A stretch of 64,000 bases of DNA from Parasphingorhabdus cellanae. Its GTDB lineage: Bacteria; Pseudomonadota; Alphaproteobacteria; Sphingomonadales; Sphingomonadaceae. Location: NCBI RefSeq assembly GCF_017498565.1, contig NZ_CP071794.1, forward strand, positions 3,713,953-3,777,952. The letters are read 5' to 3'. The number at the start of each line of letters is the position of its first letter. The stretch's first letter is position 1. Made by a program: the position numbers and the translations under genes. Below, one piece after another: positions 37,383 through 61,523 of the stretch. Below the pieces are notes generated by a model that saw only the letters and a list, made by a program, of their open reading frames with translations, did not search any database and was not told where the DNA came from.

Positions 37383-39728
37383 ATGGATGAATCCGCGGCA
37401 ATAGCAAAAGCGGTTCCTCTGCTGACACAGGGGCCGAAATTATTTGTTTTAGATGCGCGTAACCGTGTCGAGCGCCGCTATTTACTGGATTGGCTTCATA
37501 CATCTCTTGCAGAGGGCGGGCCTGACCGGGAAATAAACTGGGTCAGTCTTCCGATATCTGACGAACGGGCTCGTTTGCGGTTGAAAGAATTGATCCGGAA
37601 ACTGGATGCTGACCCGGATACTACCGTAATACCGGTGCGGATCGCTTGGCGAATTCCTAATTTTGAGAAAGGCCGGGCACTTCAAAAGCGCCACGCCTTG
37701 TTCGGTGATCCCCGGATGCCAGGAAGTTTTCGGGCACGGACGATCTTGCTTCGTAACAAGCGCCGGGCACACTGCCTGACAGGGCAACCAGCAACAATTA
37801 GCGACCTCCGGCAACGCTTTGCGCAGCAGAATGCAGTTGAAGTTCAAAGCGATGATGAGCATGAATTTGCTGGTTTTGTGGTGCGTCAAGCTGGCCTTGT
37901 TCTTGATATCGAAGAGCGCGGCCTTCGCGGACGTCGATACAAAGTACCGCGCTTTGTCGCTGACGGCCTCAGAACAAGTCCGAAATTCAGAGCAGCGATG
38001 ACCGAACTGGCAGCCGATCTCGATAAGCCGGAAACGGCGCTTTACGAAGAAGCGAGCAAATACATGAAAGAGCTAATCGCTCGTCCAAGTGCGTTCTTCA
38101 TTGATATGAAGGCAAAGCTCGACCGTTTCATGTTGTCGCAGGGTTACGAAGACAAGGTGGTTTTCAAAAAAAGTGAGCTGGCACGATTGCGCAAAACAAT
38201 GCGGGACCATCCGACGCTGCTTCTGTTCACGCACAAAACTTATATTGATGGGGTAACGCCCACCGATCTGGCCTATCAAAATGATTTGCCGATGGTGCAT
38301 GTATTTGGCGGGATTAATCTCGATTTCTTTGGCCTTGGCTTTGTCTTGCGCCGTGCAGGTACGATTTTCATTCGCCGAAGCTTTGAGAATAACCCGGTCT
38401 ACAAGCTCGTGCTGCGCCACTATGTCAGCTATTTGCTTGAGAAACGCTTTCCCATGACTTGGGCATTTGAAGGCACGCGCTCCCGGCTCGGAAAATTAAT
38501 GCCGCCGCGTTACGGCTTGCTAAAATATGTGATGGATAGCGCTAATGTGAACGATATTAAGAATGTGCATATCATTCCGGTCGTGACCAGTTTTGACCTC
38601 ATCCGCGACGTCGAAGAATATGCAAGCGAACAAACAGGGCGTGCCAAGAAAGCGGAATCACTGAGCTGGTTTATCGGTTATCTTCGAAGCCTGCGTGAGC
38701 CAATGGGGAAGGTTTATGTTGATTTCGGCAAGCCGGTGGTCATCAAGCAGGCACCTGAGCCCAATGATCGCATTGGCTTATCCAAAATTGCCTTTGAAGT
38801 GGCTGTGGAGGCCAATCGTGCGACACCGCTGACTTTGACCTCTCTTATGTGCCTAAGCTTGTTGGGCACTGCTCCTCGTGCAATGACCGCAGATGAATTG
38901 CGTGCGGTGATCAATTTCTTTGTCGAATGGGCGCAAGAACGCAAAATCCGGTTTAGCGAGGATTTGACCCGGCAAAATCTGGAGGGCATCCAAAAAGTTG
39001 TGGATACACTGGTCAACAGCGGATTGTTTATGCGCTATGATCAGGGGTCAACCACGGTTTATGCGATCCAGCCTGAAAAACATCCGTTGGCGAGCTATTA
39101 CCGCAATTCTATTATCCACCATTTTCTTGATAAGGCAATAATTGAACTATCGCTGCTAAAGGCACGGGAAAATAAGGATAATGTACCTAAAGATGTGTTT
39201 TGGGCCGAAACGGAACGATTGCGCGATCTGTTTAAATTCGAATTTTTCTACCCACCGAAAAAAGAATATCGCAAAAACCTCAAAGCGGAATTGACACGCG
39301 CCTGTGCTGATTGGGAAATGAAGCTCGATAAAGGTGGGGTGTTGTTAAAAAGCCTGACCAACCGTTTCCAGCCTCTAATTGGCCATGCTGTTTTCCTTCC
39401 GTTCGTTGAATCATACACCGTTGTGCTAGATATATTGTCGCGGCTGGAGCCCGGCCAGGCAATTGACAAGAAGACTTGTGTTGAAGAGGCCCTGAAAGAA
39501 GGACGCCAAGCCTATTTGCTGCGGCGCATTACGAGCGAGGCCTCAATCGGCAAGATCTTGTTCGAAAACGGCTTCAAAATGGCTACAAGTCAAGGCCTGA
39601 CGGGTGAAACAACCGATGAAACTATCATGAAGCGCAAGGCTTTGCTCCGCAAATTCCGAGCGTTGTCACGGCGAATGGAAAAATCACGCTTGGAGGTACT
39701 AAATCTCGCCGACAAGATTTTTGACTGA
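37383..39728 (+). CDS. plsB: Glycerol-3-phosphate 1-O-acyltransferase
   Basis: PlsB transfers a fatty acyl group to sn-glycerol-3-phosphate, the first step of phospholipid and triacylglycerol synthesis. The 781-residue length matches the long PlsB form. The acyltransferase motif is FTHKTYIDG (His284, Asp289, HX4D intact though the usual HRS is HKT), then GTIFIRRSF and AFEGTRSRLGK for substrate binding. The C-terminal half is helical. It follows the HAD-PlsC gene by 9 bases and precedes a WS/DGAT gene by 26, in one apparent operon. GpsA downstream would supply its glycerol-3-phosphate. Confidence 0.9.
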   Translation: MDESAAIAKAVPLLTQGPKLFVLDARNRVERRYLLDWLHTSLAEGGPDREINWVSLPISDERARLRLKELIRKLDADPDTTVIPVRIAWRIPNFEKGRALQKRHALFGDPRMPGSFRARTILLRNKRRAHCLTGQPATISDLRQRFAQQNAVEVQSDDEHEFAGFVVRQAGLVLDIEERGLRGRRYKVPRFVADGLRTSPKFRAAMTELAADLDKPETALYEEASKYMKELIARPSAFFIDMKAKLDRFMLSQGYEDKVVFKKSELARLRKTMRDHPTLLLFTHKTYIDGVTPTDLAYQNDLPMVHVFGGINLDFFGLGFVLRRAGTIFIRRSFENNPVYKLVLRHYVSYLLEKRFPMTWAFEGTRSRLGKLMPPRYGLLKYVMDSANVNDIKNVHIIPVVTSFDLIRDVEEYASEQTGRAKKAESLSWFIGYLRSLREPMGKVYVDFGKPVVIKQAPEPNDRIGLSKIAFEVAVEANRATPLTLTSLMCLSLLGTAPRAMTADELRAVINFFVEWAQERKIRFSEDLTRQNLEGIQKVVDTLVNSGLFMRYDQGSTTVYAIQPEKHPLASYYRNSIIHHFLDKAIIELSLLKARENKDNVPKDVFWAETERLRDLFKFEFFYPPKKEYRKNLKAELTRACADWEMKLDKGGVLLKSLTNRFQPLIGHAVFLPFVESYTVVLDILSRLEPGQAIDKKTCVEEALKEGRQAYLLRRITSEASIGKILFENGFKMATSQGLTGETTDETIMKRKALLRKFRALSRRMEKSRLEVLNLADKIFD

Positions 39729-39754
39729 CTGATCCTATCAGAAAGGACTCGCCC

Positions 39755-41308
39755 ATGACCGACAAGCAGCAACCTCATCAGCTTAGTGCGCAGGATGCGC
39801 AGTTTGTCTATATGCAGACGCCCGACAATCTTACTCATGTCATGGCCGTCTATATCTATGATCCATCTTCCGCGCCTGGCGGGAAAGTTCGCTTCAAAGA
39901 TATTATTGAACATATGCGCAAACGCATGGTGGTTTCACCCATGTTTAAGCGCAGACTTTACCGGCTACCGCTGGATATTGATCATCCTTACTGGGTCGAA
40001 GACGAACATTTCGACCTGGAAGCGCATATCTCCCATAGTCGATTGCCAGAACCGGGCGATTGGCGCCAGTTTTGCATCCATGTCGCGCGCCACCACAGCA
40101 AACCGCTTGATATGAACCGGCCTCTCTGGGACATGTATGTGGTCGAAGGTCTGGACAATATCGAGGGCGTTGCGAAAGGCAGCTATGCCATTTTAACGCG
40201 GATACATCATTCGACAATTGACGGCACGTCAGGGGCTCATTTCTTTGCGTCTATTTCCGATATTGACACAAAAGGGACACCGGCCATTCCACTCCCAAAG
40301 AAAGAGGCGGAGATGGCACCGCTTCCTGAACCAGCGGAAATATTGAGCCGCGCTGTCAACAGCACCGTGACATCGCCAGTCAAACTCACGCAAGCGCTTT
40401 TGAAACTTACACCAGCGATATTGAAAAATGCTCAGAAAAACATCGCTAGTGATAGTGAGGGTGGTGAAGGAAAAGTACCGGAAACGCGGTTTAACGGTGC
40501 TGTTTCACCCCATAAAATGTTTGAAGCAGTCACGTTCGATCTTGATGATCTGAAAGCCATTAGACTGAAAGTAGATGGCGCGACTATCAATGATGTTGTG
40601 CTCGCCATTTGTAGTGGGGCGCTGCGTAAATATCTGACGAAACATAAAGAGCTTCCGGATGAATCGCTAGTGGCGGTCGCGCCAATCAACGCGCGTAGCA
40701 GAACAGGGGAGGAAGCCAATCCGGGCACCAACATAACCGCCATGACTGTCAAAATCTGGTCGAACATCGCTAACCCCATAGAGCGTTTGGAAGCCATCAG
40801 AGATACAACCCGCGAGACCAAAGCGGCCAAATCAGGTCTGAGCGCGCGGATCATGACGGATCTTACAAAACATATTCCTGGCGCGACCATGTCAGGTGTC
40901 GCACGGGTTCTGAATAGCGAGCGCTTCGCTCAAAAAGTGAGCAATCTATTCGTATCCAACGTGCCAGGGCCGCAGGTCCAGCTTTATATGAACGGCGCTA
41001 AACTAACTCATCAATATGGATTAGGGCCATTGGGCAACGGTATGGGCCTGTTTATTGCCACGCCGAGCTATCACGGAACGATTTCATTCAGCATTATTTC
41101 TGACCGAAAAATCATGCCAGACATTGAGTTTTTCCGCGAATGCCTCCAAACAGCGTTCGTACAGCTTCGAGATGCAAAGCCGGTAAAGGGCAGGGCCAAA
41201 GCAAAGGTGCCTCAATCAAAACCGGAAGCAAAACCGCAAGATGGCTCGGTTATGTATCGCCGGGTTTCAAAAAATCCGCGAAAAACGAAGCCAGAAAAGA
41301 CTAAATAG
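39755..41308 (+). CDS. Wax ester synthase/diacylglycerol acyltransferase (WS/DGAT)
   Basis: A 517-residue acyltransferase that makes triacylglycerol or wax esters from acyl-CoA. The catalytic motif HHSTIDG (151-157; His152, Asp156) matches the HHxxxDG signature, and the N-terminal LSAQDAQFVYMQTPDNLTHV and PLWDMYVVEGL are characteristic. C-terminal domain contacts include NVPGPQVQLYMNGAKL. The last about 45 residues are basic (for example KGRAKAKVPQSKPEAK), recalling the tail of the HAD-PlsC protein. The downstream patatin gene starts 84 bases later. Confidence 0.94.
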   Translation: MTDKQQPHQLSAQDAQFVYMQTPDNLTHVMAVYIYDPSSAPGGKVRFKDIIEHMRKRMVVSPMFKRRLYRLPLDIDHPYWVEDEHFDLEAHISHSRLPEPGDWRQFCIHVARHHSKPLDMNRPLWDMYVVEGLDNIEGVAKGSYAILTRIHHSTIDGTSGAHFFASISDIDTKGTPAIPLPKKEAEMAPLPEPAEILSRAVNSTVTSPVKLTQALLKLTPAILKNAQKNIASDSEGGEGKVPETRFNGAVSPHKMFEAVTFDLDDLKAIRLKVDGATINDVVLAICSGALRKYLTKHKELPDESLVAVAPINARSRTGEEANPGTNITAMTVKIWSNIANPIERLEAIRDTTRETKAAKSGLSARIMTDLTKHIPGATMSGVARVLNSERFAQKVSNLFVSNVPGPQVQLYMNGAKLTHQYGLGPLGNGMGLFIATPSYHGTISFSIISDRKIMPDIEFFRECLQTAFVQLRDAKPVKGRAKAKVPQSKPEAKPQDGSVMYRRVSKNPRKTKPEKTK

Positions 41309-41392
41309 GTGAGAAAATTAGAGCGCGATACTCAAAAAGGGTGCGTTTCCTCATCAATCTCTCTATTCGATCATACAGTAAGTGAGTGATAT

Positions 41393-42871
41393 ATGATTTT
41401 GAATACTAGTTTGAAGATTGAAAAGGCGATGGCGCAGGCGGAAAACTACTCCGACTGGTCAGATGCAGCAGCGCGGCATGATCGCTCGACGGGAGTGGAC
41501 GTCTGGAAATCTGAAGATGAAAGTAAGCATTTCGACTATAAGTCGATCCGCCGCCGCCTGAAACGTTTATCCCGGCTTTGGAAGGCGCAAGACAATGCAG
41601 GACTGCTCTATGCCTTGAATGAAGGTATTCACGGGAATATGGACGGCATGGGCAATGACAGGCTGCACCAAAAGGCGAAATTCGGCACTAAGCAGCTGAT
41701 CCAGGATTATGTCGATGCGATCGTAAATTCGCTGGAATATTTAGCGAGTGACAAAGTTACAGATATTCCTTTCGAAGAGAAGCTCGATTTTTTTCGCCGC
41801 GCTCAGCATTGCTATGGTCGTTCCGCCTTTTTGATGAGCGGTTCGGGTGCTTTTTTATACTTCCATATGGGCGTCGTGAAGGCGCTATGGTCTGAAGGAC
41901 TGCTGCCGCATATTTTGTCTGGATCAAGTGGCGGCTCGGTCGTTGGGGCGCTGGTGAGTACCCATGTTGATAACGAGATACCGCCATTTTTCGAACCTGA
42001 AAATCTGGTCACTGAGGGGCGAGATGAACTGGTAGAACATACTGGTTTTGGAATGCTGGGAAGTACTAAGCGCCTGAAGATTGACGAAGTCCGGGAACGG
42101 ATCAGCTCCATGATCCCAGACCTGACGTTTCAGGAAGCTTATGAGTTGACTGGCCGACATTTGAACGTTTCGATCGCGCCTGCTGAAAAACATCAAACAT
42201 CCAGACTGCTAAACGCTATCGCTTCGCCTAATGTCTATGTACGTGAAGCCGTCATGGCGTCTTGCGCGGTTCCTGGTATTTATCCCCCGGTCACTTTGGC
42301 TGCCAAAGATCATAAAGGTGTGCGCAAGCCATATTTGCCAAACCGCAAATGGGTTGACGGATCGGTGACTCATGATCTTCCTGCAAAACGCCTCGGTCGA
42401 CTTTACGGCGTGAATCATCATATTGTGAGTCAGGCAAATCCACTGATCACGCCTTTTGCCACCGACGTTAAGCAGCAAAAAACGCCTATAGGGGCGATCA
42501 GAAATGCCACGACCTCTACGATGAAGGCTTGGCTTAATGCCAATGTAGAGATTATGCAAAAACCGCTATCGTATTTTCCAAGACTGAACACGATGGCGAA
42601 CATGACTTTATCGGTGATCAATCAGGATTATACGGGGGATATAAATATTATCCGGCCCAGCATGTTCTGGAGCCCGAATAAATTACTCAGCGATCTGTCG
42701 CTAGAGGACATTACCGAACTTATTCAGCTAGGCGAGCGCACAACCTGGCCGAAAATCGAAATGGTTCGAACGCAGACGAAGATCAGTCAGACGCTAGACC
42801 GAATTTTGTTCGAATATGAAACTGAGTTGGCTCATGATCATGTTACGGCGATGAAAAGGAAAATCGCTTGA
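41393..42871 (+). CDS. DUF3336-patatin family lipase (TAG lipase-like)
   Basis: A 492-residue patatin-type lipase. The first about 145 residues match the DUF3336 module found before the patatin domain in eukaryotic triacylglycerol lipases such as yeast Tgl3/4/5 and plant SDP1. The patatin domain has GSGAFLYFHMG (oxyanion site), GSSGG with nucleophile Ser179, and VDGS with Asp322 of the Ser-Asp dyad. An alternative start at 41429 (MAQAENYSDW) is possible. The stop overlaps the next gene's start (TTGA). Neutral-lipid hydrolysis is inferred from domain architecture and neighbours. Confidence 0.88.
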   Translation: MILNTSLKIEKAMAQAENYSDWSDAAARHDRSTGVDVWKSEDESKHFDYKSIRRRLKRLSRLWKAQDNAGLLYALNEGIHGNMDGMGNDRLHQKAKFGTKQLIQDYVDAIVNSLEYLASDKVTDIPFEEKLDFFRRAQHCYGRSAFLMSGSGAFLYFHMGVVKALWSEGLLPHILSGSSGGSVVGALVSTHVDNEIPPFFEPENLVTEGRDELVEHTGFGMLGSTKRLKIDEVRERISSMIPDLTFQEAYELTGRHLNVSIAPAEKHQTSRLLNAIASPNVYVREAVMASCAVPGIYPPVTLAAKDHKGVRKPYLPNRKWVDGSVTHDLPAKRLGRLYGVNHHIVSQANPLITPFATDVKQQKTPIGAIRNATTSTMKAWLNANVEIMQKPLSYFPRLNTMANMTLSVINQDYTGDINIIRPSMFWSPNKLLSDLSLEDITELIQLGERTTWPKIEMVRTQTKISQTLDRILFEYETELAHDHVTAMKRKIA

Positions 42872-43722
42872 AGCGTCAGGAGGGGAGCCTAACGCTGGCA
42901 TCACCGTCTGTTGCTGTTGGTGCAAAGCTCTATTGCCAGAATTGGATACCAGACGAGGCGCCTAAGGCAGTTATCATATTGGTCCATGGCTATGATGAGC
43001 ATAGCGGTCGATATGCTTATTTCGCAGAGCATTGTGTAAATAATGGGTTTGCGGTTCATACATTGGACCACTGGGGGCACGGAAAATCAGATGGCGTGCA
43101 TGGTTTTGTGCCCGATTTCACGGTCTATCATGATGGTTTGGACGCGCTCCTTGATCAGTTACCAGAGGACCAGCGGGCATTGCCGTTGATATTGGTGGGC
43201 CATAGCCTTGGCGGTTTGATCAGCGCATCATATTTACTCGAAAATCAATCTCAATTCGCAGCGGCTGTACTATCGGGGCCAGCGATCAAAGCAACCGAAG
43301 AGCCATCTTCTTTCATGAAGGGCTTGAGCCGTTTTCTGTCTAACGTTGCTCCAAAAATGGGCGTATTGAGTCTTGATGCCACGGGCGTTAGCCGAGATCC
43401 GCAAGTGGTTGCTGACTATCTTGCGGACCCGTTAGTGTCTGGCACAAAGATCAGTGCGCGGCTGGCGGCAGAGATGATGGGTTATATGGAAGTCGTTCAA
43501 AACAAGGCGGATCATATTAAGCTGCCGATGCTGTTGCTACATGGCGAAGATGACAGTCTCACAGCACCGGAAGGGTCGGTATTCCTGCACGAACATATTG
43601 GTTCAGACAAAAAAATGTTAAAAATCTATCCTAGGCTGTTTCATGAGATTTTTAACGAGCCGGAAAAAGATGCCGTGCTGACAGATATGACCGACTGGAT
43701 TAATCGCATATTGGCAAAATAG
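42868..43722 (+). CDS. Monoacylglycerol lipase-like alpha/beta hydrolase
   Basis: A 284-residue hydrolase with the monoglyceride lipase pattern: VHGYDEHSGRY near the N-terminus, LDHWGHGKSDG, GHSLGG with nucleophile Ser113, HGEDD with the acid residue, and the diagnostic FHEIFNEPEKD with catalytic His. The start is a TTG overlapping the patatin stop by four bases, preceded by AAAGGA; the overlap suggests coupled translation. It would release glycerol and a fatty acid from monoacylglycerol, the final step after the patatin lipase. Confidence 0.9.
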   Translation: MKRQEGSLTLASPSVAVGAKLYCQNWIPDEAPKAVIILVHGYDEHSGRYAYFAEHCVNNGFAVHTLDHWGHGKSDGVHGFVPDFTVYHDGLDALLDQLPEDQRALPLILVGHSLGGLISASYLLENQSQFAAAVLSGPAIKATEEPSSFMKGLSRFLSNVAPKMGVLSLDATGVSRDPQVVADYLADPLVSGTKISARLAAEMMGYMEVVQNKADHIKLPMLLLHGEDDSLTAPEGSVFLHEHIGSDKKMLKIYPRLFHEIFNEPEKDAVLTDMTDWINRILAK

Positions 43723-43752
43723 GCGCAAGAATGCAAATGGGGGAATGCCGCA

Positions 43753-44682
43753 ATGATGATTATATTATATGTCTTGGGTGCAATAATTCTGGCCTTGCTG
43801 GTCAGTTATTTCGTTCTTCCTAAAGCGCTTTATGACCTAATGACTGCTCTACTTCGCCTACGCGGCGGTATGCGGCTGAAAAAGATCAGGGTAGGGGACA
43901 ATATATGGCCTTATCTTGAGGGTGGTCGCAGAGACGGAGTGCCAATCATTCTGCTCCATGGCTTTGGCGGCGATAAGGACAACTGGTCCATTTATGCGCC
44001 GCATATCACCAAACATCACCGTGTGATCGCACCTGACTTGCCGGGATTTGGAGAGAATGATCGTTCACTGGATCGCGACTATGATGTTGCGACACAGGCG
44101 CACCGGTTAAACGCCTTTCTGGATGCGATGAATATAAACAAATGTCATATTGGCGGTAACAGCATGGGCGGTTTTATCGCGCTGCAATTTGCGCTGGAAT
44201 ATCCGCAGAAAATATCGTCGCTTACCTTGTTCAATAATGCTGGCGTGGTCGGCGAAAACAAGAGTGAATTGCAGGTCGCCGCTGAGAAAGGCGAAAATGT
44301 ATTGGCGCTGGAAAGTCTCTCTGATGTTGATCGGCTGATGTCTTTTGTCGCTTACAAACCTGTTGCGATGCCGAAGAATTTCAAAAAGCTATTCTATGCC
44401 GAAGCTGCAGAACATCGAGATCTTCTGGATAAGATTTTCTGGCAGATAGCCGGTTCTGGCATAAACCACCCCCTCAACGACCGTTTGAGTGAAGTTACAG
44501 CACCGAGCCTTATCATATGGGGTAGACACGATCGGCTGATCGATGTGAGCTGTGTTGATGTTCTGGATCAGGGGTTAAAAAATAGCGAAGCAGTGATCTT
44601 GGAAGAAACAGGACATATACCGATGATTGAAAAACCCAAGGATACCGCATCCGCGCAACTCGCATTTCTTGCAAAACACTGA
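43753..44682 (+). CDS. Membrane-anchored alpha/beta hydrolase (ABHD6-like)
   Basis: A 309-residue hydrolase. Residues about 3-22 form an N-terminal membrane anchor, unlike the preceding soluble one. The catalytic pattern is IILLHGFGGDKDNW, then NSMGG with nucleophile Ser137, GRHDRLID with the acid, and EETGHIPMIEKP with the His. This arrangement resembles ABHD6-type lipases and also bacterial esterases; the substrate may be lipid or xenobiotic ester. It sits in the lipid cluster 30 bases after the monoacylglycerol lipase, with GGGGGAA before its ATG. Confidence 0.85.
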   Translation: MMIILYVLGAIILALLVSYFVLPKALYDLMTALLRLRGGMRLKKIRVGDNIWPYLEGGRRDGVPIILLHGFGGDKDNWSIYAPHITKHHRVIAPDLPGFGENDRSLDRDYDVATQAHRLNAFLDAMNINKCHIGGNSMGGFIALQFALEYPQKISSLTLFNNAGVVGENKSELQVAAEKGENVLALESLSDVDRLMSFVAYKPVAMPKNFKKLFYAEAAEHRDLLDKIFWQIAGSGINHPLNDRLSEVTAPSLIIWGRHDRLIDVSCVDVLDQGLKNSEAVILEETGHIPMIEKPKDTASAQLAFLAKH

Positions 44683-44751
44683 ATTTCCAGCCAGTTTAGC
44701 CGGAAAGAGCTTCTTGCTAAGAGGAGTCGCTAGAAATGTGGGGAGATTAGC

Positions 44752-45753
44752 ATGAAATTGCGCGTCGGGTTATTGGGTGGTGGTTCCTGGGGAACAACGG
44801 TGGCTTCTTTGGTGTCACGCAATGCGCCGATTAAGATTTGGGCGCGCGATAACGATACCGTCCGGGACATAAACGAAAACCATCGCAACAGTAAATATCT
44901 GCCCGACGCCACACTGCCAGAGGCATTGCAAGCGACAGGCGATATCGGTGAAGCGGTTAAAGATGCCGACGTACTGGTGATGGGAATCCCATCCAATAAT
45001 TTTCGGGATGTTCTGAAAGAAGCAAAATCCTATTTACGGCCCTGGGTTCCGGTCATTAGCCTGACCAAGGGTTTAGAGCTTTCTACTGGAAAGCGGATGA
45101 CAGAAGTGATTGAAGAAGTTTTGCCCGGTCATCCCGTTGGTGTTTTGACCGGACCCAATCTGGCGCGAGAAATAATGGCTGGCCAGGCGGCGGCCAGTGT
45201 GATTTCAATGGAAGACGAGATTATCGTCAAACAATTGCAACAGCTTTTCCATTCCGGTTTGTTTCGTGTTTATACAAATACGGATTTGCTTGGCTGTGAG
45301 CTTGGCGGCGTGCTGAAAAATATTATCGCAATAGCTGTCGGTATGGGTGATGGGCTCGGGGCAGGAGATAATACGCGCTCTGCTCTGATCACACGCGGCT
45401 TGGCAGAAATTACCCGCTTGGGTGTGGCTATCGGAGGACGCCCTGAAACTTTTTCCGGTTTAACAGGCATGGGGGATATGATTGCGACTTGCACCAGCCC
45501 GTTAAGCAGAAACCGGCATGTCGGCGTAGAGCTAGGGAAAGGTCGTAAGATTGACGATATTATTGAAGATATGCTGATGGTGGCAGAGGGCGTTAAAAGT
45601 GCACCCACTGTTATGGCGTTGGCAAAAAAATATAATGTCGCAATGCCGATTGCGGAAGATGTTTATGAAGTGACGAAAGGAACGCGATCTGCTGTACGCG
45701 CTTATCGGGGTCTGATTAGCGCATCGGCCGGGTCCGAGGCTGATGCCGGATGA
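44752..45753 (+). CDS. gpsA: Glycerol-3-phosphate dehydrogenase [NAD(P)+]
   Basis: GpsA reduces dihydroxyacetone phosphate to sn-glycerol-3-phosphate, the backbone for phospholipids and triacylglycerol. The 333-residue product starts after GGGGAG and has the Rossmann motif LLGGGSWGTT, the NAD(P)-specific loop with WARDN, SLTKGLE, VLTGPNLAREI, the catalytic lysine in ELGGVLKNIIAIAVG and a C-terminal GLTGMGDMIATCTSPLSRN. Placement at the end of the plsB-containing cluster is functionally coherent, since its product is the PlsB substrate. Confidence 0.96.
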   Translation: MKLRVGLLGGGSWGTTVASLVSRNAPIKIWARDNDTVRDINENHRNSKYLPDATLPEALQATGDIGEAVKDADVLVMGIPSNNFRDVLKEAKSYLRPWVPVISLTKGLELSTGKRMTEVIEEVLPGHPVGVLTGPNLAREIMAGQAAASVISMEDEIIVKQLQQLFHSGLFRVYTNTDLLGCELGGVLKNIIAIAVGMGDGLGAGDNTRSALITRGLAEITRLGVAIGGRPETFSGLTGMGDMIATCTSPLSRNRHVGVELGKGRKIDDIIEDMLMVAEGVKSAPTVMALAKKYNVAMPIAEDVYEVTKGTRSAVRAYRGLISASAGSEADAG

Positions 45754-46107: not shown

Positions 46108-47061
46108 ATGGATTTGAGAAGCCAAGCCGTAAATGATGTTGAGGGTGATTTGATCCTTGATGAGACGGAATCCTTGATCTTTCAGCAGCACGGTTTCGGC
46201 CAGGATATACTCCAGCAGCAATTTAATGAGATCGACTTACGGTTCGACAAATCAGATGAAATATTCTGGTGTTATATGAACCAGAAATCCCGACCCAGTT
46301 ACACTTATGCTCTGGGTGATGAAATTCAGCTTGTTCAAGACTGGGTTCAGACGAACTATGGACCTAGTGCTGCCAAGGCTGCTGATCCTTTGAGATATTT
46401 TGTATGTGGATCACATACTCCCGGCATTTATAATCTCGGCGGGGATTTAAAGCATTTTGCTGATTGCATCAGGCGCCGGGACTTGGGCGCGCTAAAGAAA
46501 TACGCGCGGACCTGTGTTCATATGCAATATGCAAATAGCACCGGCTTTGGCGCACCGATTATCACTATGGCATTGGTCCAGGGAGATGCATTGGGCGGAG
46601 GGTTCGAACATGCTCTGGCATTCGACCTTTTGGTAGCCGAGAAAAGCGCAAGATTGGGGTTGCCCGAGATTTTGTTCAATCTTTTTCCCGGTATGGGCGC
46701 TTATAGTTATCTGCGGCAACGGCTTAGCCGTCGGGAGACGGAACGGTTCATATTAGAAGGTAAATTATTCACAGCGGAAGAGCTCTATGACATGGGGGTT
46801 GTCGACATTCTCGCCGAAGATGGCAAGGGTGAGCAGGCAATAATCGAATATACCAAGGAAAATCGTAAACGTTTCCATGCGGAACGCGCTGTTTATAAAG
46901 CTCGTCGCTTAGCCAATCCGGTAACGCTAGATGAATTGCTAGAGATTACCGATATGTGGGCAGAAACGGCACTGCATCTTGAAGATGCAGATGTACGCAA
47001 AATGGAGCGTTTGGCAAACGCTCAGCAACGCCGGATGGAACGTTCGCTTCTGGCAGTTTAA
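46108..47061 (+). CDS. rpfF: RpfF-type DSF synthase (enoyl-CoA hydratase family)
   Basis: A 317-residue crotonase-fold enzyme matching RpfF, which makes cis-2-unsaturated fatty-acid signals (DSF family) from acyl-ACP by dehydration and thioester cleavage. The ATG at 46108 follows GTGGAGAG. The most telling region is QGDALGGGFEHAL, then LGLPEILFNLFPGMGAYS: two glutamates, E167 and E187, 20 residues apart, as E141 and E161 of Xanthomonas RpfF. This is not a generic enoyl-CoA hydratase, which lacks the FNLFPGMGAYS signature. It converges on rpfC (3-base gap), as in Xanthomonas. Confidence 0.93.
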   Translation: MDLRSQAVNDVEGDLILDETESLIFQQHGFGQDILQQQFNEIDLRFDKSDEIFWCYMNQKSRPSYTYALGDEIQLVQDWVQTNYGPSAAKAADPLRYFVCGSHTPGIYNLGGDLKHFADCIRRRDLGALKKYARTCVHMQYANSTGFGAPIITMALVQGDALGGGFEHALAFDLLVAEKSARLGLPEILFNLFPGMGAYSYLRQRLSRRETERFILEGKLFTAEELYDMGVVDILAEDGKGEQAIIEYTKENRKRFHAERAVYKARRLANPVTLDELLEITDMWAETALHLEDADVRKMERLANAQQRRMERSLLAV

Positions 47062-47064
47062 ACC

Positions 47065-49671
47065 TTAGCCCGCAGCGCTGAAACCGCTGTCCGCGACCCT
47101 AGTGTGGCGCGGGGATGGTTTGCTTAAGAAATCAGTAATTCTGGATAATTCTGTTTTTATCTCGTCGAGATAAACAAACCGTTTTTCGGTGAATTCTGCT
47201 TCAGTAATAACTTCAAGGACGCCGCACATTTGGGCGAGCTTGTTCGCTCCAACATTATTGGCACCGCTTTTAAAAGCATGTGCCTGAAAGCGAAAGTCAT
47301 CGACATTTGATTGTTTCACCGATTGTTCAAATAGCAGCATAATTTCCTGCGTATCCTCGATATAGGCATCAATAATTGATTGAATAAAAACTTCATCCCC
47401 AATGGATTTGAGATAGTCCATTTGGACACCATCTATCGGTGGTTCTGATTGGTTGGTTGCTTTTGTTCCGATATTGCGAACGACATTGAAGGGATCATTA
47501 GTATCGCTCATTGCCTGCGCTGTGTTGGCCTCAAGGAAGTTACCCGTCTGTTCTGCGACCGTATCCAGTAAAACCCCGGCTTCAATTGGCTTGGTAAGGC
47601 GAAGATCCATCCCGGCATCGAGACACTTCTTTTCTGTTTCCGGGGTTGAGTCAGCCGTCAAGCCGATTATTGGCACATGATTGCGAGGGCCTTCAATCTG
47701 GCGCCATAATTTACAGCACTCAATACCATCAATATTGGGCATATTGACGTCGAGAAATACGATATCAAAAGAATATTTTTCGAGTTCATCCAACGCCAAC
47801 TCACCGTCGGAAACCGCAACGACCTTGTGTCCGGCATTGACCAGGATGGTCTGCAAAACCATTTGATTGGTTCGGTTATCGTCCGCGATTAATATGTCGA
47901 GAGATACGTCGTTGCGAATAATCCGATCTGGATCATCTTCTTCGTTATTGTTGGTGCGATTAAATGAACAGCCGATCTGGACGACGCTGCGCACCGCATC
48001 AAAGTCTGGTGAGGCAGGTAAAACGGAAGCGAACGCAGCACGCAATTTTATTTCGTCCAGACTTTTACTGCTGTCATTGGAGAGTAGGACAGGGGGCAGA
48101 TTGGCTTCTTGGAAAATATCCCAGAGCGCGGAGTTATCCCTTTGCTGCTCTGCTATCATATCGTCCAGCAAAGCCAGATCATAAGAATGAAGCGCACGTT
48201 TCTCGAGTATCACTTCGAGTTTGTCATCGGTTAAACACTGGATATGGTCGACCTCAACATCACCTGCGTCCGAGCCACTTATCTCGGGACCATTTTGCCC
48301 AAAACCAAGTGATAAAATTTTGAGATTGTCTGAGTCTGCGGCATTCTGGACGGCCTTTATAATCTCAATCGGGCATGATAGCATAAAAGTGCTGCCCTCT
48401 CCCAATGTGCTATCGAGACTGACATGTCCGTCCATCTGTATCGCCAATTGCTGACAAATCGCCAATCCAAGACCAGTTCCTCCAAAATTGTCGATGATAG
48501 TTTCATCGGCTTGTTGGAAAACTCCGAAAATCTTGTCATGGGCGTCGGCCGCGATGCCAGGTCCGGTGTCAGTAACCGAACACCAAAGCAGAGGAACATC
48601 GGCGTCGGTGTCGATACCGCATTTCAATGTTATTGAGCCGGTTTCAGTGAATTTTACAGCATTGCTGGTGAGATTGATCAATATGTTACGGATATATTCC
48701 AATTGTCCGCTAACAAGTTGATCACTCATCGCTTCGGCCTGCAAATGAATGGTCAAGGCTTTTTCATCGGCCGCCAATTGCATGATGTCTCGGACTTCGG
48801 TGAGCACATCCACAATGCTGAACGTCTTCGGTTCCGGCAGCTCCTCTTGTGTGTCCGAGCGCGCAAAACTGAGCAGTTGATTGATCAAATGTAAAAGATG
48901 CTGACCGGCAGAAACGCTTGTGCTTACCATTTTTTGCTGCGCTTCCGGCAAGTTCATGTCCAGCAAATGCGTGCCATAACCGATAATAGCGTTGAGCGGG
49001 GTCCGCAGTTCGTGACTGATACTGGCAAGAAACAGACTTTTGGCTTTGTTCGCCTCTTCGGCCTCTTTCGTTGCTTTGGATATTTTTATAATCAGCGTCG
49101 AACAATAGGCAGGAATGATGATTAGCCCGAAAAGAAGCCCCAATGAGAGTGAAAGGTTTTGCTGCCAGAACGGGACACTGTAAACAGTCCAGCCAAATGA
49201 TAGTGTCCCCATCGCGGCGGCAACGGCAAGCCACTTTATGCCAAAGCGGAAACCGTAACCTAGGATCACCCATAAGTATAACGGATAGAGGGCGGCCACC
49301 GCGCTACCGCCTATGTCGAAGAGGTACGTTGCCACTCCAAAATCCGTCACTAGCCCGGCCAATCGCCTGGGATTGCTGGGGCCAGGTTCAAGGCGATACG
49401 CTATGTAGATGGTCAAGCTTGCCATCAGATGGAGCTTGAGGCCAAGCATTATGGGTTGTGTTGCATCAAGGAACAACGAAATGGAAAGGGTTATAACAAT
49501 CAAAACCAACCGGTTTATGATCATTTCCCGTTCGCGGTCCCGGCCGCGTGTCGCTAAACTATTGTGATGGCGACCGTGGTGATGGCGCCCGTTATGATGA
49601 CGACTGTGATGATGATGAGGCTTACCATGACTATGTTTCTTGTGCCGCGTTTTCGGGTTGAATGTAAACAT
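47065..49671 (-). CDS. rpfC: RpfC-type hybrid sensor kinase (DSF receptor)
   Basis: An 868-residue hybrid kinase. A His-rich N-terminus (14 His among residues 10-36) precedes five or so membrane helices (about 51-198), the sensor part of RpfC with the typical GYGFRFGIKWL. Then come HisKA (His220 in SISHELRTPLN), a HATPase domain (TDTGPGI, GGTGLGLAI), a degenerate receiver-like stretch at about 450-570, an intact receiver (Asp641 phospho-acceptor, Lys694) and an Hpt domain (His798 in AHAFKSGANNVG). This domain order is that of Xanthomonas RpfC. The start at 49671 follows AAAGG and AGGCGGA. It begins 5 bases after the stop of the REC-GGDEF-EAL gene and is co-transcribed with it. Confidence 0.92.
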   Translation of the reverse strand: MFTFNPKTRHKKHSHGKPHHHHSRHHNGRHHHGRHHNSLATRGRDREREMIINRLVLIVITLSISLFLDATQPIMLGLKLHLMASLTIYIAYRLEPGPSNPRRLAGLVTDFGVATYLFDIGGSAVAALYPLYLWVILGYGFRFGIKWLAVAAAMGTLSFGWTVYSVPFWQQNLSLSLGLLFGLIIIPAYCSTLIIKISKATKEAEEANKAKSLFLASISHELRTPLNAIIGYGTHLLDMNLPEAQQKMVSTSVSAGQHLLHLINQLLSFARSDTQEELPEPKTFSIVDVLTEVRDIMQLAADEKALTIHLQAEAMSDQLVSGQLEYIRNILINLTSNAVKFTETGSITLKCGIDTDADVPLLWCSVTDTGPGIAADAHDKIFGVFQQADETIIDNFGGTGLGLAICQQLAIQMDGHVSLDSTLGEGSTFMLSCPIEIIKAVQNAADSDNLKILSLGFGQNGPEISGSDAGDVEVDHIQCLTDDKLEVILEKRALHSYDLALLDDMIAEQQRDNSALWDIFQEANLPPVLLSNDSSKSLDEIKLRAAFASVLPASPDFDAVRSVVQIGCSFNRTNNNEEDDPDRIIRNDVSLDILIADDNRTNQMVLQTILVNAGHKVVAVSDGELALDELEKYSFDIVFLDVNMPNIDGIECCKLWRQIEGPRNHVPIIGLTADSTPETEKKCLDAGMDLRLTKPIEAGVLLDTVAEQTGNFLEANTAQAMSDTNDPFNVVRNIGTKATNQSEPPIDGVQMDYLKSIGDEVFIQSIIDAYIEDTQEIMLLFEQSVKQSNVDDFRFQAHAFKSGANNVGANKLAQMCGVLEVITEAEFTEKRFVYLDEIKTELSRITDFLSKPSPRHTRVADSGFSAAG

Positions 49672-49676
49672 TCCGC

Positions 49677-51833
49677 CTAACCTTTTGCCGCGCTAGACGC
49701 TTGCTCTTGCGGTTTAAGAAATAGTTTGGGCAAATCCTCCACTCGCTGTGGACGAGCAATTTGATATCCCTGTATCTCGTCAACGCCTGAAACTTGAAGC
49801 AGCTCAAGTTGTGCATCGTTTTCAACGCCCTCGGCAATGACGCGCATATCAAGCGCGTGAGCGAGATGCGAGATTGTCCCAATAATGGCGCGATCGGCGG
49901 CTGAATGTTCGATGCGCGATATAAAGGTGCGATCAATTTTGAGGCAATTTGCTGGCAAATCACGCAGATATTGCAACGATGAATAGCCAGTGCCGAAATC
50001 ATCGATGGAGATCCCGACACCGGTTTGGCGCAGACGATTTAAAGTCTCACGGACATGATCGTTATTATCGAGCAATAGCTCTTCAGTAATTTCGACCACG
50101 ATCTTCGATGGATCAATTCCGTTTTTCTGGATATTCTTCAATATCTCTTCGCAGACATTCTGGTTTTGAAACTGGCGCGGCGATACGTTTATGGCGACAC
50201 GCGGCAGATCGATGCCTTCCTCCGCAAATTGTCGGATCTGTTTGCAAACCTCGGCAATAACCCATTTGCCCAAGCTATCCATAATACCTGTGTCATCGGC
50301 TACTCTTATAAACTGTACCGGCAGCAAACGCCCGCGGGTCGGATGGTCCCAGCGAATTAACGCTTCCAGTCCGACATAGTTTAAGGTCTTCGCATCAACA
50401 ATCGGTTGATATTCGAGGGCAAACTGATCCTGTCCCAGCGCGTCGCGCAACTCTATTTCCAGAGCAGCATCAGCCTGAGCGATTTGGTTCATACCTTCCG
50501 AGAAAAAGCGGTGGCAATTACGGCCATTGGCTTTCGCATCATACATTGCGAGATCGGCGAGGCGCAGCAACTCTTCATAATCATCACCATCGTTTGGAAT
50601 TAAGCTGACGCCGATACTCGCGCCGATGACTTGCTCTATCCCGCTTATGGAATATGGTTGATTGATCGCTTTCAATATTTTGGTACACCGCGAGTTGATG
50701 GCGTCTGCGCCTTCCACTTTGCCCAAAATGATCGCAAACTCATCACCGCCTATGCGTGCTGCGAAGTCGTCTGGACCGATCATCTCGAGAAGGCGGTCAG
50801 CCACTTCCCGCAGCAACGTGTCACCGCTATGATGGCCGCGCGTGTCGTTGATTACTTTGAAGCGATCGAGGTCCAGCAGCAGCAAAGCCGCTTCCTGTCC
50901 GGTTTTCGCGCAGGTATCGATCGCTTTGCGAACCTTTTCGGCCAACAGTGCGCGATTGGGTAGGCCCGTCAACATGTCATGGAGAGCAAGATGCGTGCGG
51001 TGCTCTTCAGCAAATTTACGGGCGGTAATATCCACTGCTGTCGTCAATACTCCGATGGTTTCACCATTGTGATTGAGCAGCGGAGATTTGTTGCAGTGGA
51101 AGATCAACTCAACGCCGTCACTTGTGAACTTCTCTTCATAATGCGGTATTGGCTGTTCCGATTTCAGCACGCTTTTATTTCTGCGTTCAGAATTCTGTGC
51201 AAGGTCCGGCCCCAGCAATTCGCCAAAATCCTTGCCAACCATTTGATCGGGCGTCTTGTCGAACAGGGCCGATTGATAAGCATTGGTGAACAGACACCGA
51301 CCTGACCGATCGGTGGCGTTGATCATGATTGGTATGGTATCAATAATCTGCTCGAGCATGCTTTTGCTTGCCGGCGTGTCTTGATCTACGGCATCAGAGA
51401 GCGCCGCATGTTTGCGTTCAATCTCGGAAGCGCGCTTTCTCAGATTGACGCTTTTTTCGTTTTTCGTCAAAAGCGACATCGCCCGTTTGCAAAACTCAAC
51501 GTGGGATACCGGACTTTGTAGGAAGTCGGTCGCGCCGGCATCCAGCGCAGACAACCGGCACTCGCGGTCCTGATGTGCTGTGATCACGATTGCGGGAACG
51601 TCGCTGCAAGAGGACATCTTGCGCACTTTTCTGATAAATTCCGCGCCATTCATTTGTGGCATCCGATAATCCACCACCAGCAATTCAGCGCTGTTATTCC
51701 CCAACCATTCCAGCGCTTCGATGGGATCGGCAAATGTCACGGAGGAGTATTTCTCCCCCATGATTGTCACAAACTGGGCATAAATCCTTAGATTTGTTGG
51801 CCGGTCATCGACGATGAGAACGCGCGTTGTCAT
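49677..51833 (-). CDS. Response regulator with PAS-GGDEF-EAL output
   Basis: A 718-residue cyclic-di-GMP response regulator. The receiver (1-120) has D9, D10 and phospho-acceptor D55 (VVDYRMP), but the conserved Lys is replaced: FLQSPVS has Ser107 where FLxKP is usual. A PAS domain (about 160-275, TIPIMINATDRSG) links to GGDEF (362-366) and EAL (490-492 in LEALIRWDHP). Both catalytic signatures look intact. It sits upstream of rpfC in one unit, the position of RpfG (REC-HD-GYP) in Xanthomonas. It may therefore be the output of RpfC. The gene starts 107 bases after the putA stop. Confidence 0.9.
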   Translation of the reverse strand: MTTRVLIVDDRPTNLRIYAQFVTIMGEKYSSVTFADPIEALEWLGNNSAELLVVDYRMPQMNGAEFIRKVRKMSSCSDVPAIVITAHQDRECRLSALDAGATDFLQSPVSHVEFCKRAMSLLTKNEKSVNLRKRASEIERKHAALSDAVDQDTPASKSMLEQIIDTIPIMINATDRSGRCLFTNAYQSALFDKTPDQMVGKDFGELLGPDLAQNSERRNKSVLKSEQPIPHYEEKFTSDGVELIFHCNKSPLLNHNGETIGVLTTAVDITARKFAEEHRTHLALHDMLTGLPNRALLAEKVRKAIDTCAKTGQEAALLLLDLDRFKVINDTRGHHSGDTLLREVADRLLEMIGPDDFAARIGGDEFAIILGKVEGADAINSRCTKILKAINQPYSISGIEQVIGASIGVSLIPNDGDDYEELLRLADLAMYDAKANGRNCHRFFSEGMNQIAQADAALEIELRDALGQDQFALEYQPIVDAKTLNYVGLEALIRWDHPTRGRLLPVQFIRVADDTGIMDSLGKWVIAEVCKQIRQFAEEGIDLPRVAINVSPRQFQNQNVCEEILKNIQKNGIDPSKIVVEITEELLLDNNDHVRETLNRLRQTGVGISIDDFGTGYSSLQYLRDLPANCLKIDRTFISRIEHSAADRAIIGTISHLAHALDMRVIAEGVENDAQLELLQVSGVDEIQGYQIARPQRVEDLPKLFLKPQEQASSAAKG

Positions 51834-56419: not shown

Positions 56420-57010
56420 GTGGAATTCTCTTATGCTGATATATTGGATATGCTTTCGATAAAGCATAACGTGACTAAAGATAAGGTGGTGGCATTTCGC
56501 GGAAGGCTACAGCATTTCCAGCGTCTTGGTTTTCCGGCTGGTGCAAATACCGGCAAAGGTCACATGGTTGCCTATTCATGGCGGGAACTGTTCCTAATTG
56601 GTCTTGCTTTGGATTGCTTGGAAATTGGTTCAACGCCCGACCGTAGTGTCAATGAAATCGTGAAATTCGAAGATGTTTTTCTGTCAGCCGTGGCGCGCGT
56701 CGCAAGAGGCGGCCAAGCGGATGACGGTGGAGAGTTTGCATGCTTTTTAATTGTTGAATTGTCTAACTTGATGTCGCTGAAAGCTGAGAATGATTGGAGC
56801 CAAACCGTTAAATTGCTGTCACATAGCGATCTGATGGAAATATTATCGAGTGAGGGTTTGGATGCTCATCGCTCACCTTATGCGTTGATAGATTTGCGTC
56901 AGTTTTTGGCTGGCATTTTAAATGCATCTTTTGAAACTCTTGATGGCTCGAAAACAAAAATCATTAGTGATTTGAAAAATTGGGCCAGCCAGCAACCTGA
57001 CGTTGATTAG
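56420..57010 (+). CDS. Unrecognised protein, possibly MerR-like N-terminus
   Basis: A 196-residue protein not recognised. A GTG start at 56420 is supported by GGGGA 7 bases upstream. The first about 75 residues (YADILDMLSIKHNVTKD, VVAFRGRLQHFQRLGFP, YSWRELFLIGLALDCLE) read like a helical DNA-binding or MerR-like fold: a helix-turn-helix candidate, then an LGFP and a following helix. The rest is helical without motifs, ending NWASQQPDVD. There is no signal peptide or membrane helix. It lies alone between lrp and thyA behind a long perfect hairpin. A regulatory role is a guess from the N-terminus only. Confidence 0.75.
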   Translation: MEFSYADILDMLSIKHNVTKDKVVAFRGRLQHFQRLGFPAGANTGKGHMVAYSWRELFLIGLALDCLEIGSTPDRSVNEIVKFEDVFLSAVARVARGGQADDGGEFACFLIVELSNLMSLKAENDWSQTVKLLSHSDLMEILSSEGLDAHRSPYALIDLRQFLAGILNASFETLDGSKTKIISDLKNWASQQPDVD

Positions 57011-61200: not shown

Positions 61201-61523
61201 TGGAAGCTAAAGTGGGTCTGAAGATCTCGGGCAGCGCCAAAATGGGATATGCTTCAGGCTGGTCATTCAAACCAGAAATGAAACTGGATTATGTAAACCG
61301 GATTTCGGGGAACGACACGAATTTCCGGGTTCGTTTCCTGGATGCAGAAAACCTTCCGTTCGCTTTGCCGATTGGTTTGCAAGACGCGTCTTATGGCGAG
61401 ATGAAAGGTGGATTTAGTTTGACCAACGGACCTCTGAGCTTTGGTGCTGCGGTTGAAAGCCGATTGGGGCAGCAAATCTATCGCGATGATCGGGCAGTCG
61501 TGAATATGTCGGTTCGCTTCTAA
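58236..61523 (+). CDS. S1-family (trypsin-like) serine protease autotransporter
   Basis: A 1095-residue exported protein. A signal peptide spans 1-30 (ending APAQAQ). The trypsin-like triad is His111 (FAAHCVN), Asp183 (EADVALATL) and Ser309 (GGDSGSALV). After the protease region (to about 380) comes a beta-rich passenger with autotransporter-associated repeats (for example GSIAPGRDFGDTGTLTIAG), and the last about 280 residues are a beta-barrel ending in SVRF. This is a type V secretion protease. It has GGGAG before its start and a strong terminator after the stop, so it is a single-gene unit. Its substrate is unknown. It is the second autotransporter protease in the window. Confidence 0.92.
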   Translation: MSFRTISRFLFVTVSSTACVAGLAAPAQAQTGPTVSDNSAQSRPVMVEDAPKIVIRDDLTLDDPPPVGVFDNIVDVTGVGQMTVRGDQNSFGLGLCTGTLINPRTVIFAAHCVNSREADDYGFASGGTAIAFGFSADNRPAVRRWVGLDDGVANQTDVDFNIYNVEQVWYDERSIPTGFLEADVALATLDTHADGVPTWTLLFSPLREETHGVINGYGARGLGPDGSNLGIDFRRRIAENMISSASSLDDRNNFLFGPDDPNLPQTLYNTDFDSPDGEAVFDPENGRFDFDLYDGAALPREGTTAGGDSGSALVADELYDTPVITSVLSGGSRFFGDEDDPEPELTFQPFSSYGTQSFYQPLYLFWDQIVANNSYVYASSRAGTRSWMNPRHWVQDMDPSYAIDVDGELVNALPGFEAPGITGDTPKFGNVCFLDDCLDLSTLSVEFDEGTPNSVFIEGGPGSRNFVPNNVVADPSMDIRARYYEVTLAANGATRLRDDVTIDRLNIEGAARLDIRRRGNLKVWGDYTQTGGWLDLRGTLTTGEAFLGVGLLTGNGFFDPTFLTSVNGSIAPGRDFGDTGTLTIAGDVILASGTLSIFDVNRRRNDKLAVIGDADNSGIISLGGTAAVVNAFGRNSARFGQTFEIVTAEGGVENTFDDVVGRIGVLYPELIYGSNNVTARMRAIRFSDFFGSSGVTNPFSLAFGNALDSARSSSYTDLSNVFGLIDVMEVNQLSATFQGLSASQAGRTTTLDQQQGSTMRNLVSDRLSLLGASEGVKGKIKIIGAPGVLNNRELTNSSASQISFAGNYQSSSWNDVQLPENMSGFMSAGYNQSTLAFGSNGAQDQQGSWHIAMGLEYGLNDRVTLGTAFGYADGAQQVSGSLANVETNQASVYGNYRLGGNFYIGGQASMSYSQIDSNSRVSSGISLSNLNTNSLTFASEIEAGYNIDVDGLLLTPRASIGYSSYSVDGFRDSAGSLAMAVDEISRSGMEAKVGLKISGSAKMGYASGWSFKPEMKLDYVNRISGNDTNFRVRFLDAENLPFALPIGLQDASYGEMKGGFSLTNGPLSFGAAVESRLGQQIYRDDRAVVNMSVRF

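What the first reader, a model, noticed from the sequence alone, without database searches (positions are those of the whole stretch)
46108..51833. A DSF quorum-sensing module in a sphingomonad-like genome
RpfF has the two glutamates (E167, E187) at the same spacing as the catalytic pair of Xanthomonas RpfF, within the FNLFPGMGAYS-type signature. It converges on an RpfC-like kinase with TM-HisKA-HATPase-REC-Hpt layout, with 3 bases between stops, which is the Xanthomonas arrangement. DSF systems are well described in gammaproteobacteria and Burkholderia; occurrence with this conserved layout in an alphaproteobacterium is less known. I infer the cell makes and senses a cis-2-unsaturated fatty acid.
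Basis: partly seen in the sequence, partly recalled or inferred. Interest (0 to 1): 0.8.

Follow-up and report, generated by a model that had tools for sequence, protein, structure and literature searches.

The report
Rewired DSF signalling module in sphingomonads
A sphingomonad bacterium carries genes that probably make and respond to a fatty-acid signal known from plant pathogens, but its sensor has lost known signal-docking residues and its output protein is a different enzyme, so the pathway looks inherited and rewired rather than copied.

Summary
In detail: RpfF (46108-47061) carries the two catalytic glutamates and converges, 3 bases stop to stop, on an RpfC-like hybrid kinase (47065-49671). 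RpfF groups with proven DSF synthases, apart from the genome's own enoyl-CoA hydratases (100/100; fold search). Its receiver is the genome's closest to RpfG's, with Ser for the conserved Lys. RpfC's five DSF-docking residues, proven in Xanthomonas, are intact in 15 of 20 other alphaproteobacterial kinases and in 0 of 17 of this sphingomonad type. The genes behave as a unit: 36 of 39 named loci match all three; one same-genus genome lacks all three. Elsewhere in Alphaproteobacteria 16 of 17 related third genes found are REC-PAS-histidine kinases. Verdict: a probable DSF-family system, a new variant with changed sensor and swapped c-di-GMP output. 'Makes a cis-2 fatty acid' is well supported by homology; 'senses it as Xanthomonas does' is not. 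RpfF is not rare in alphaproteobacterial genomes (24 of 385).

The parts
46108..47061 (+). RpfF-like DSF synthase (crotonase fold), 317 aa
   Evidence: NCBIfam PRK08788 350 bits, cut-off 177; PDB RpfF chains 159-194 bits; tree; fold search
46606..46608 (+). codon of catalytic E167 (Xcc E141)
   Evidence: alignment
46666..46668 (+). codon of catalytic E187 (Xcc E161)
   Evidence: alignment
47065..49671 (-). RpfC-like hybrid histidine kinase, 868 aa
   Evidence: Pfam; of the own-genome matches to the kinase of an RpfF-kinase-REC-HD-GYP locus, the only one reaching its membrane region
49564..49644 (-). histidine-rich tract (residues 10-36) before the sensor region; strong in the window's genus
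49522..49545 (-). equivalent of the RpfC DSF-docking motif RxDSExxQ, here GRDREREM (residues 43-50)
   Evidence: residue identities from PMC5391125 passages
49087..49521 (-). membrane region of RpfC-like kinase (residues 51-195), five hydrophobic segments
   Evidence: hydropathy; alignment
48850..49044 (-). HisKA (210-274), H220
   Evidence: H220 invariant in 17 of 17
48367..48696 (-). HATPase_c (326-435)
47956..48330 (-). tentative degenerate receiver domain (448-572)
   Evidence: hhalign to the protein's own REC, probability 82.6; only 20.8 to the REC of G; tentative
47557..47895 (-). REC (593-705), D641 and K694
   Evidence: best-scoring REC-only PDB chain is RpfC's 3m6m_D
47209..47376 (-). 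Hpt (766-821), H798
   Evidence: H798 invariant in 17 of 17
49677..51833 (-). REC-PAS-GGDEF-EAL protein in the rpfG position, 718 aa
51486..51821 (-). REC of G (5-116), D55 kept
51513..51515 (-). codon of S107, where RpfG-type receivers have the conserved lysine
51015..51341 (-). PAS_4 domain of G (165-273)
50517..50987 (-). GGDEF domain (283-439), GGDEF motif intact
49749..50453 (-). EAL domain (461-695), catalytic motifs intact

Best explanation
This is a DSF-family cell-cell signalling module of a sphingomonad lineage. RpfF makes a cis-2-unsaturated fatty acid from a 3-hydroxyacyl-ACP (inferred from homology and a conserved active site; substrate and product unknown). The RpfC-type kinase controls RpfF and relays phosphate H220-D641-H798 towards the receiver of the third protein (inferred from domains and operon). 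That protein, REC-PAS-GGDEF-EAL, replaces RpfG and changes c-di-GMP. Shown: gene set, synteny, homology, conserved residues, presence or absence as a unit. Inferred: signal identity, direction of the c-di-GMP change, phosphotransfer. The sensor site differs from that of Xanthomonas, so either a different signal is read there, or part of the sensing has moved to the PAS domain.
For: RpfF: PRK08788 350 bits. G85, G86, G138, E141 and E161, and pocket positions L136, M170, W258 and L276, are identical to Xcc in the window (pocket list recalled). 42 RpfF rows separate from 6 own-genome enoyl-CoA hydratases with 100/100 support. Foldseek: 12 best PDB chains all DSF synthases at 1e-23 to 1e-26, next 2e-15. 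C: only own-genome match to L192's kinase that reaches the membrane region. G: best own-genome match to RpfG's REC, 86.2 bits against 57.7 for the next REC. Unit: 36 of 39 named loci match all three; all three missing in G305, a same-genus genome listed at 100% completeness, where gpsA and putA meet with overlapping stops.
Against: No product or phenotype is known. S18 and Q22 of the RpfC docking site are changed. G's receiver lacks the conserved lysine, which normally couples phosphorylation to output (recalled). The NCBIfam RpfF equivalog cut-off is not met (225 of 550 bits), but a Burkholderia-type RpfF 95% identical to the solved synthase 5fus scores 181.9, so that cut-off is narrow. In one search another kinase has the single best segment (198.5 against 198.1 bits for C; C has a second segment of 90.2). 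RpfC-G phosphotransfer was not tested.
Confidence: 0.72

Rival explanations
1. The fatty acid is sensed mainly by the PAS_4 domain of the third protein, as in RpfR and RpfS; the RpfC-like kinase mainly holds or releases RpfF and reads another cue.
For: RpfC docking residues lost while the PAS is kept. PAS_4 of RpfS and PAS of RpfR bind DSF-type signals (PMC4504480 and PMC5391125 passages). K to S in the receiver fits a phosphorylation-independent or altered role.
Against: H220, D641 and H798 of C are invariant in 17 of 17. The same REC-PAS module occurs beside RpfCs that keep the docking site, so PAS and docking site coexist there. No ligand test.
Confidence: 0.25
2. RpfF feeds membrane or storage-lipid metabolism rather than signalling; its neighbours are glycerolipid and wax-ester genes.
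For: plsB-like GPAT, WS/DGAT, patatin, two hydrolases and gpsA lie upstream and are found in 10 of 10 same-genus loci examined.
Against: F, C and G are absent together in G305 while that lipid cluster stays. In the 6 fetched type-A loci of other genera F-C-G sits in other neighbourhoods.
Confidence: 0.1
3. The kinase has switched to another ligand, for example a metal through its histidine-rich N-terminus.
For: 14 His in the 45 residues before the sensor motif in the window; 4 to 14 in the same-genus rows of the fetched type-A set, at most 1 in its other sphingomonad rows, at most 2 in other alphaproteobacteria.
Against: The tract is absent or weak in other sphingomonads with the same gene set, falls to 3 His in some named close relatives (L222, L225, L234), and may be neutral.
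Confidence: 0.1
4. F is an ordinary enoyl-CoA hydratase and the layout is coincidence.
For: NCBI names its close relatives 'crotonase/enoyl-CoA hydratase family protein' (JGI names some of them 'DSF synthase').
Against: Tree, fold search, residues and synteny.
Confidence: 0.03

Closest known systems
Xanthomonas / Stenotrophomonas rpfF with the rpfGHC operon
   Same: Convergent rpfF; G then C in one operon; RpfC domain order; RpfF active site; homologous REC at the start of the third protein.
   Different: Third protein ends in PAS-GGDEF-EAL, not HD-GYP; its REC has Ser for Lys; RpfC docking residues S18 and Q22 changed; no rpfH between; a possible extra degenerate receiver in C.
Burkholderia / Cronobacter RpfF-RpfR
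   Same: RpfF convergent on a locus coding a PAS-GGDEF-EAL output.
   Different: RpfR has PAS-GGDEF-EAL without REC (PMC4504480 passages); RpfF 35% identical over the aligned part; here an RpfC lies between.
   Same: RpfF and RpfC relatives; REC-PAS module 30-39% identical with Ser (15) or Thr (1) for Lys in 16 of 16.
   Different: Output is HisKA-HATPase, not GGDEF-EAL; 15 of 20 other alphaproteobacterial kinases keep RxDSExxQ (S or T).
Leptospirillum rpfFCG (PMC8357829)
   Same: rpfF, rpfC and a response regulator clustered outside Gammaproteobacteria.
   Different: One-directional, HD-GYP output (passages).

Membership tests
DSF synthase (RpfF) | Crotonase with E141/E161 and catalytic glycines | tested here: met
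DSF synthase (RpfF) | Groups with proven DSF synthases, apart from enoyl-CoA hydratases | tested here: met
DSF synthase (RpfF) | NCBIfam NF053515 equivalog cut-off (550 bits) | tested here: not met
   225 bits; the control L198, a Burkholderia-type synthase, also fails at 181.9, and L192 passes at 579.7, so this tests a narrow subgroup only
DSF synthase (RpfF) | Makes a cis-2-unsaturated fatty acid | not testable with these tools
   needs LC-MS
RpfC | Membrane region, HisKA, HATPase, REC, Hpt with phospho-residues | tested here: met
RpfC | DSF-docking residues R15 D17 S18 E19 Q22 | tested here: not met
   D17 and E19 kept, S18 to R, Q22 to M, R15 uncertain
RpfC | Binds DSF and represses RpfF through REC | not testable with these tools
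   among REC-only PDB chains C's REC scores best with RpfC's REC
RpfG | REC fused to HD-GYP | tested here: not met
   REC homologous, output is PAS-GGDEF-EAL; the genome's HD-GYP proteins lie elsewhere
RpfR | PAS-GGDEF-EAL without REC, beside RpfF | tested here: not met
   has N-terminal REC and RpfC lies between

The most novel reading that the evidence does not exclude
The module unites the two known DSF pathways in one operon: an RpfC kinase that has given up the Xanthomonas docking site, and an RpfR-like PAS-GGDEF-EAL output hung on RpfG's own receiver, in which loss of the lysine marks a change from phosphorylation-driven to ligand-driven control. The third gene would be a socket in which HD-GYP, histidine kinase or GGDEF-EAL outputs have been exchanged behind one conserved receiver.
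Probability: 0.25. Interest if true: 0.75.

Novelty: new variant of a known kind. Interest (0 to 1): 0.56.

Why it matters
DSF signalling is described mainly from xanthomonads, Burkholderia and some enterobacteria, with two separate core sensing routes (PMC4504480 passages). This locus and its relatives give a natural series in which sensor docking site, receiver lysine and output domain vary while the synthase active site stays. That makes two open questions testable: what sets ligand specificity of a membrane fatty-acid kinase, and how one receiver came to drive different c-di-GMP outputs. It also predicts DSF-type signals in culturable sphingomonads (for example Parasphingorhabdus marina DSM 22363).

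Tried and rejected
Ordinary enoyl-CoA hydratase: rejected. A recent transfer from a xanthomonad: not favoured; F and C lie nearest to other alphaproteobacterial sequences. One origin of all sphingomonad RpfFs: rejected by AU test, p 0.005 (13 sphingomonad rows against 20; the grouping was prompted, so p is indicative). NCBIfam RpfF cut-off as a test of function: rejected after the control.

Led nowhere: viral contig scan with C found no relative. Ten literature searches listed, judged by titles and abstract starts, no paper on an alphaproteobacterial RpfF-RpfC locus; one search returned none. This covers only an open-licence library, and I opened five papers (PMC8357829, PMC9040811, PMC4504480, PMC8895600, PMC5391125), as passages only (plus the abstract of the last). 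PMC8895600 says that KEGG assigns RpfC-RpfG to alphaproteobacteria.

Errors and dropped rows: the first gene caller failed. In one search one hydratase row was a wrong-frame ORF; discarded and redone. One search stopped part way; replaced. One search used 42 of the 121 RpfF rows (the long, degenerate L181 among those left out). One search left out L183 (partial). In one search three rows were dropped for lack of an N-terminus (L193, L243, L240); L179 and L196 are counted although their kinases look unlike RpfC; several named loci are the same genomes as unnamed ones (e.g. L206 and L213), so 17 and 36 are not independent. One search has no positive control genome of its own; the empty site is the independent check.

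Full report
Where it lies. The window is the last 64 kb of a single-contig 3.78 Mb genome. Close relatives by RpfF sequence are named Parasphingorhabdus and Sphingorhabdus, so 'sphingomonad-like' is right.

Anatomy. F (46108-47061, +) and C (47065-49671, -) converge with 3 bases between stops; G (49677-51833, -) precedes C by 5 bases. Pfam gives crotonase for F, HisKA-HATPase-REC-Hpt for C and REC-PAS_4-GGDEF-EAL for G. The order G then C, convergent on F, is that of Xanthomonas rpfGHC/rpfF (PMC4504480, passages read).

F is a DSF synthase by every comparison but one narrow cut-off. The four best distinct PDB sequences are RpfF-type synthases, 35-42% identical. Catalytic and pocket positions are identical to Xcc in the window (G86, G138, E141 and E161 named in PMC9040811, passages; the other positions recalled). 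A tree with six enoyl-CoA hydratases of the same genome puts the 42 RpfF rows used (of 121 available) on one side with 100/100 support and in 100% of 200 bootstrap trees. The AlphaFold model (mean pLDDT 88.5, residues 1-31 of low confidence) has DSF synthases as its 12 best PDB chains, then a drop of eight orders of magnitude in E-value. The model NF053515 (RpfF equivalog) gives 225 bits against a cut-off of 550. A Burkholderia-type RpfF (L198) gives 181.9, and L192, whose F is 99.6% identical to the solved 7zq7 over 261 residues, gives 579.7, so the cut-off marks a narrow subgroup.

C is RpfC-like but its sensor differs. Searching the genome with the kinase of an RpfF-kinase-REC-HD-GYP locus (L192), C is the only match reaching the membrane region; another kinase has the single best segment by 0.4 bits, while C has two segments. 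H220, D641, K694 and H798 are invariant in the 17 kinases aligned (12 of the window's type, 5 other alphaproteobacterial). Cai et al. 2017 (PMC5391125; abstract and passages read) showed R15, D17, S18, E19 and Q22 of Xcc RpfC to be needed for DSF binding. I counted rows keeping all five (S or T at 18): 15 of 20 other alphaproteobacterial, 8 of 14 non-alphaproteobacterial, 0 of 17 sphingomonad loci of the window's type, 0 of 36 in the overlapping named set. In the window D17 and E19 stay, S18 is R, Q22 is M; R15 depends on a gap. On a kinase tree of 35 rows the 13 that lack Q22 (10 of the window's type with L162, L177, L178) and the 22 that have it are split by a branch with 100/99 support; of those 22, L182, L186, L187 and L204 lack other docking residues.

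G keeps RpfG's receiver and changes the rest. Searching the genome with the REC-HD-GYP protein of L192, the receiver of G scores 86.2 bits and the next receiver 57.7; the two best hits are HD-GYP domains elsewhere that do not align in the receiver. Of 25 third genes taken from other loci, 24 align to G's N-terminus: 16 are REC-PAS-histidine kinases in Alphaproteobacteria, aligning over 272-298 residues at 30-39% identity, and 8 are REC-HD-GYP proteins aligning over 136-161 residues; one (L157) was not related (of the 24, Pfam was run on three, the others judged by alignment and motif; in L162 the gene lies on the other strand and in L204 the order is rearranged). At the conserved receiver lysine, G has Ser in 18 of 18 rows (17 sphingomonad plus L176) and in the named set 33 Ser and 2 Thr of 35 readable. 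The 16 REC-PAS-kinases have 15 Ser and 1 Thr; the 8 HD-GYP proteins have 7 Lys and 1 Arg. L176, from another family, also has REC-PAS-GGDEF-EAL, with a degenerate GGDEF motif. The receiver tree needs 3 changes for the three outputs, least possible 2, with weak deep branches. GGDEF and EAL motifs are intact in the window (motif definitions recalled).

The three genes are one unit. 36 of 39 named loci have matches to all three in this order, two of them with one partial gene; the other three loci are cut by contig ends. Of 11 same-genus relatives drawn, 10 have RpfF and G305 does not. G305 has no match to C at 1e-60 and only GGDEF-EAL matches to G, none covering its receiver. Its upstream lipid genes, gpsA, putA, the AsnC-type gene and thyA are colinear with the window, F, C and G find nothing there at 1e-10, and the stop codons of gpsA and putA overlap. 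Whether this is loss or the state before insertion is not decided.

How widespread. F homologs at 1e-40: 102 of 298 genomes of the family, 40 of 96 genera. At 1e-25: 24 of 385 of the class and 63 of 398 of the phylum (the draws overlap and include the window's genome). Of 60 family loci fetched (of 101 matches in other genomes), 11 are F-C-G like the window, 18 have F beside a convergent GGDEF-EAL protein without C, and 31 show neither by motif in the stretch fetched. Of these 31, 30 carry a homolog of the XrtA/PEP-CTERM amidotransferase within six genes (identified by NCBIfam on L060 only). F of the window's type and F of the other two types do not form one clade (AU p 0.005).

Mechanism. Most likely RpfF makes a cis-2-unsaturated fatty acid, C restrains RpfF and relays phosphate, and G alters c-di-GMP. 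The relay and the signal are inferred. Since the docking site is changed and the receiver lacks its lysine, I give 25% to sensing through the PAS domain of G.

What is new. RpfF with RpfC outside Gammaproteobacteria is not new in itself (PMC4504480 and PMC8357829, passages; PMC8895600, passages, for RpfC-RpfG). I saw no description of a REC-PAS-GGDEF-EAL or REC-PAS-kinase replacing RpfG, nor of the docking-site loss, in the ten searches named under Tried and rejected. Hence new variant of a known kind.

Noticed in passing
L060-L097, 31 family loci: In many sphingomonads an RpfF homolog sits next to an exosortase A (XrtA/PEP-CTERM) polysaccharide cluster (30 of 31 such loci) with no DSF sensor found beside it, suggesting a link of RpfF to envelope or polysaccharide functions.
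   Followed up: partly
49564-49644: Histidine-rich tract (14 His in the 45 residues before the sensor motif) at the N-terminus of the RpfC-like kinase, strong in the genus, length variable.
   Followed up: partly
37383-45753: Glycerolipid and wax-ester cluster (plsB-like GPAT, WS/DGAT, patatin, two hydrolases, gpsA) upstream of rpfF in 10 of 10 same-genus loci examined and kept in G305, which lacks F-C-G.
   Followed up: partly
G305 (L256): Same-genus genome with the whole F-C-G module absent and the stops of gpsA and putA overlapping: a natural comparison strain.
   Followed up: yes
58236-61523: 1095-aa protein with an autotransporter beta-domain; by eye a trypsin-like serine protease motif (GDSGSA) near the N-terminus.
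   Followed up: no
L181, L182, L183, L185: RpfF homologs with E161 changed to D (L182, L183, L185) or E141 changed to D (L181), possibly altered synthases.
   Followed up: no
56420-57010: 196-aa ORF between an AsnC-type regulator and thyA with no Pfam match.
   Followed up: no
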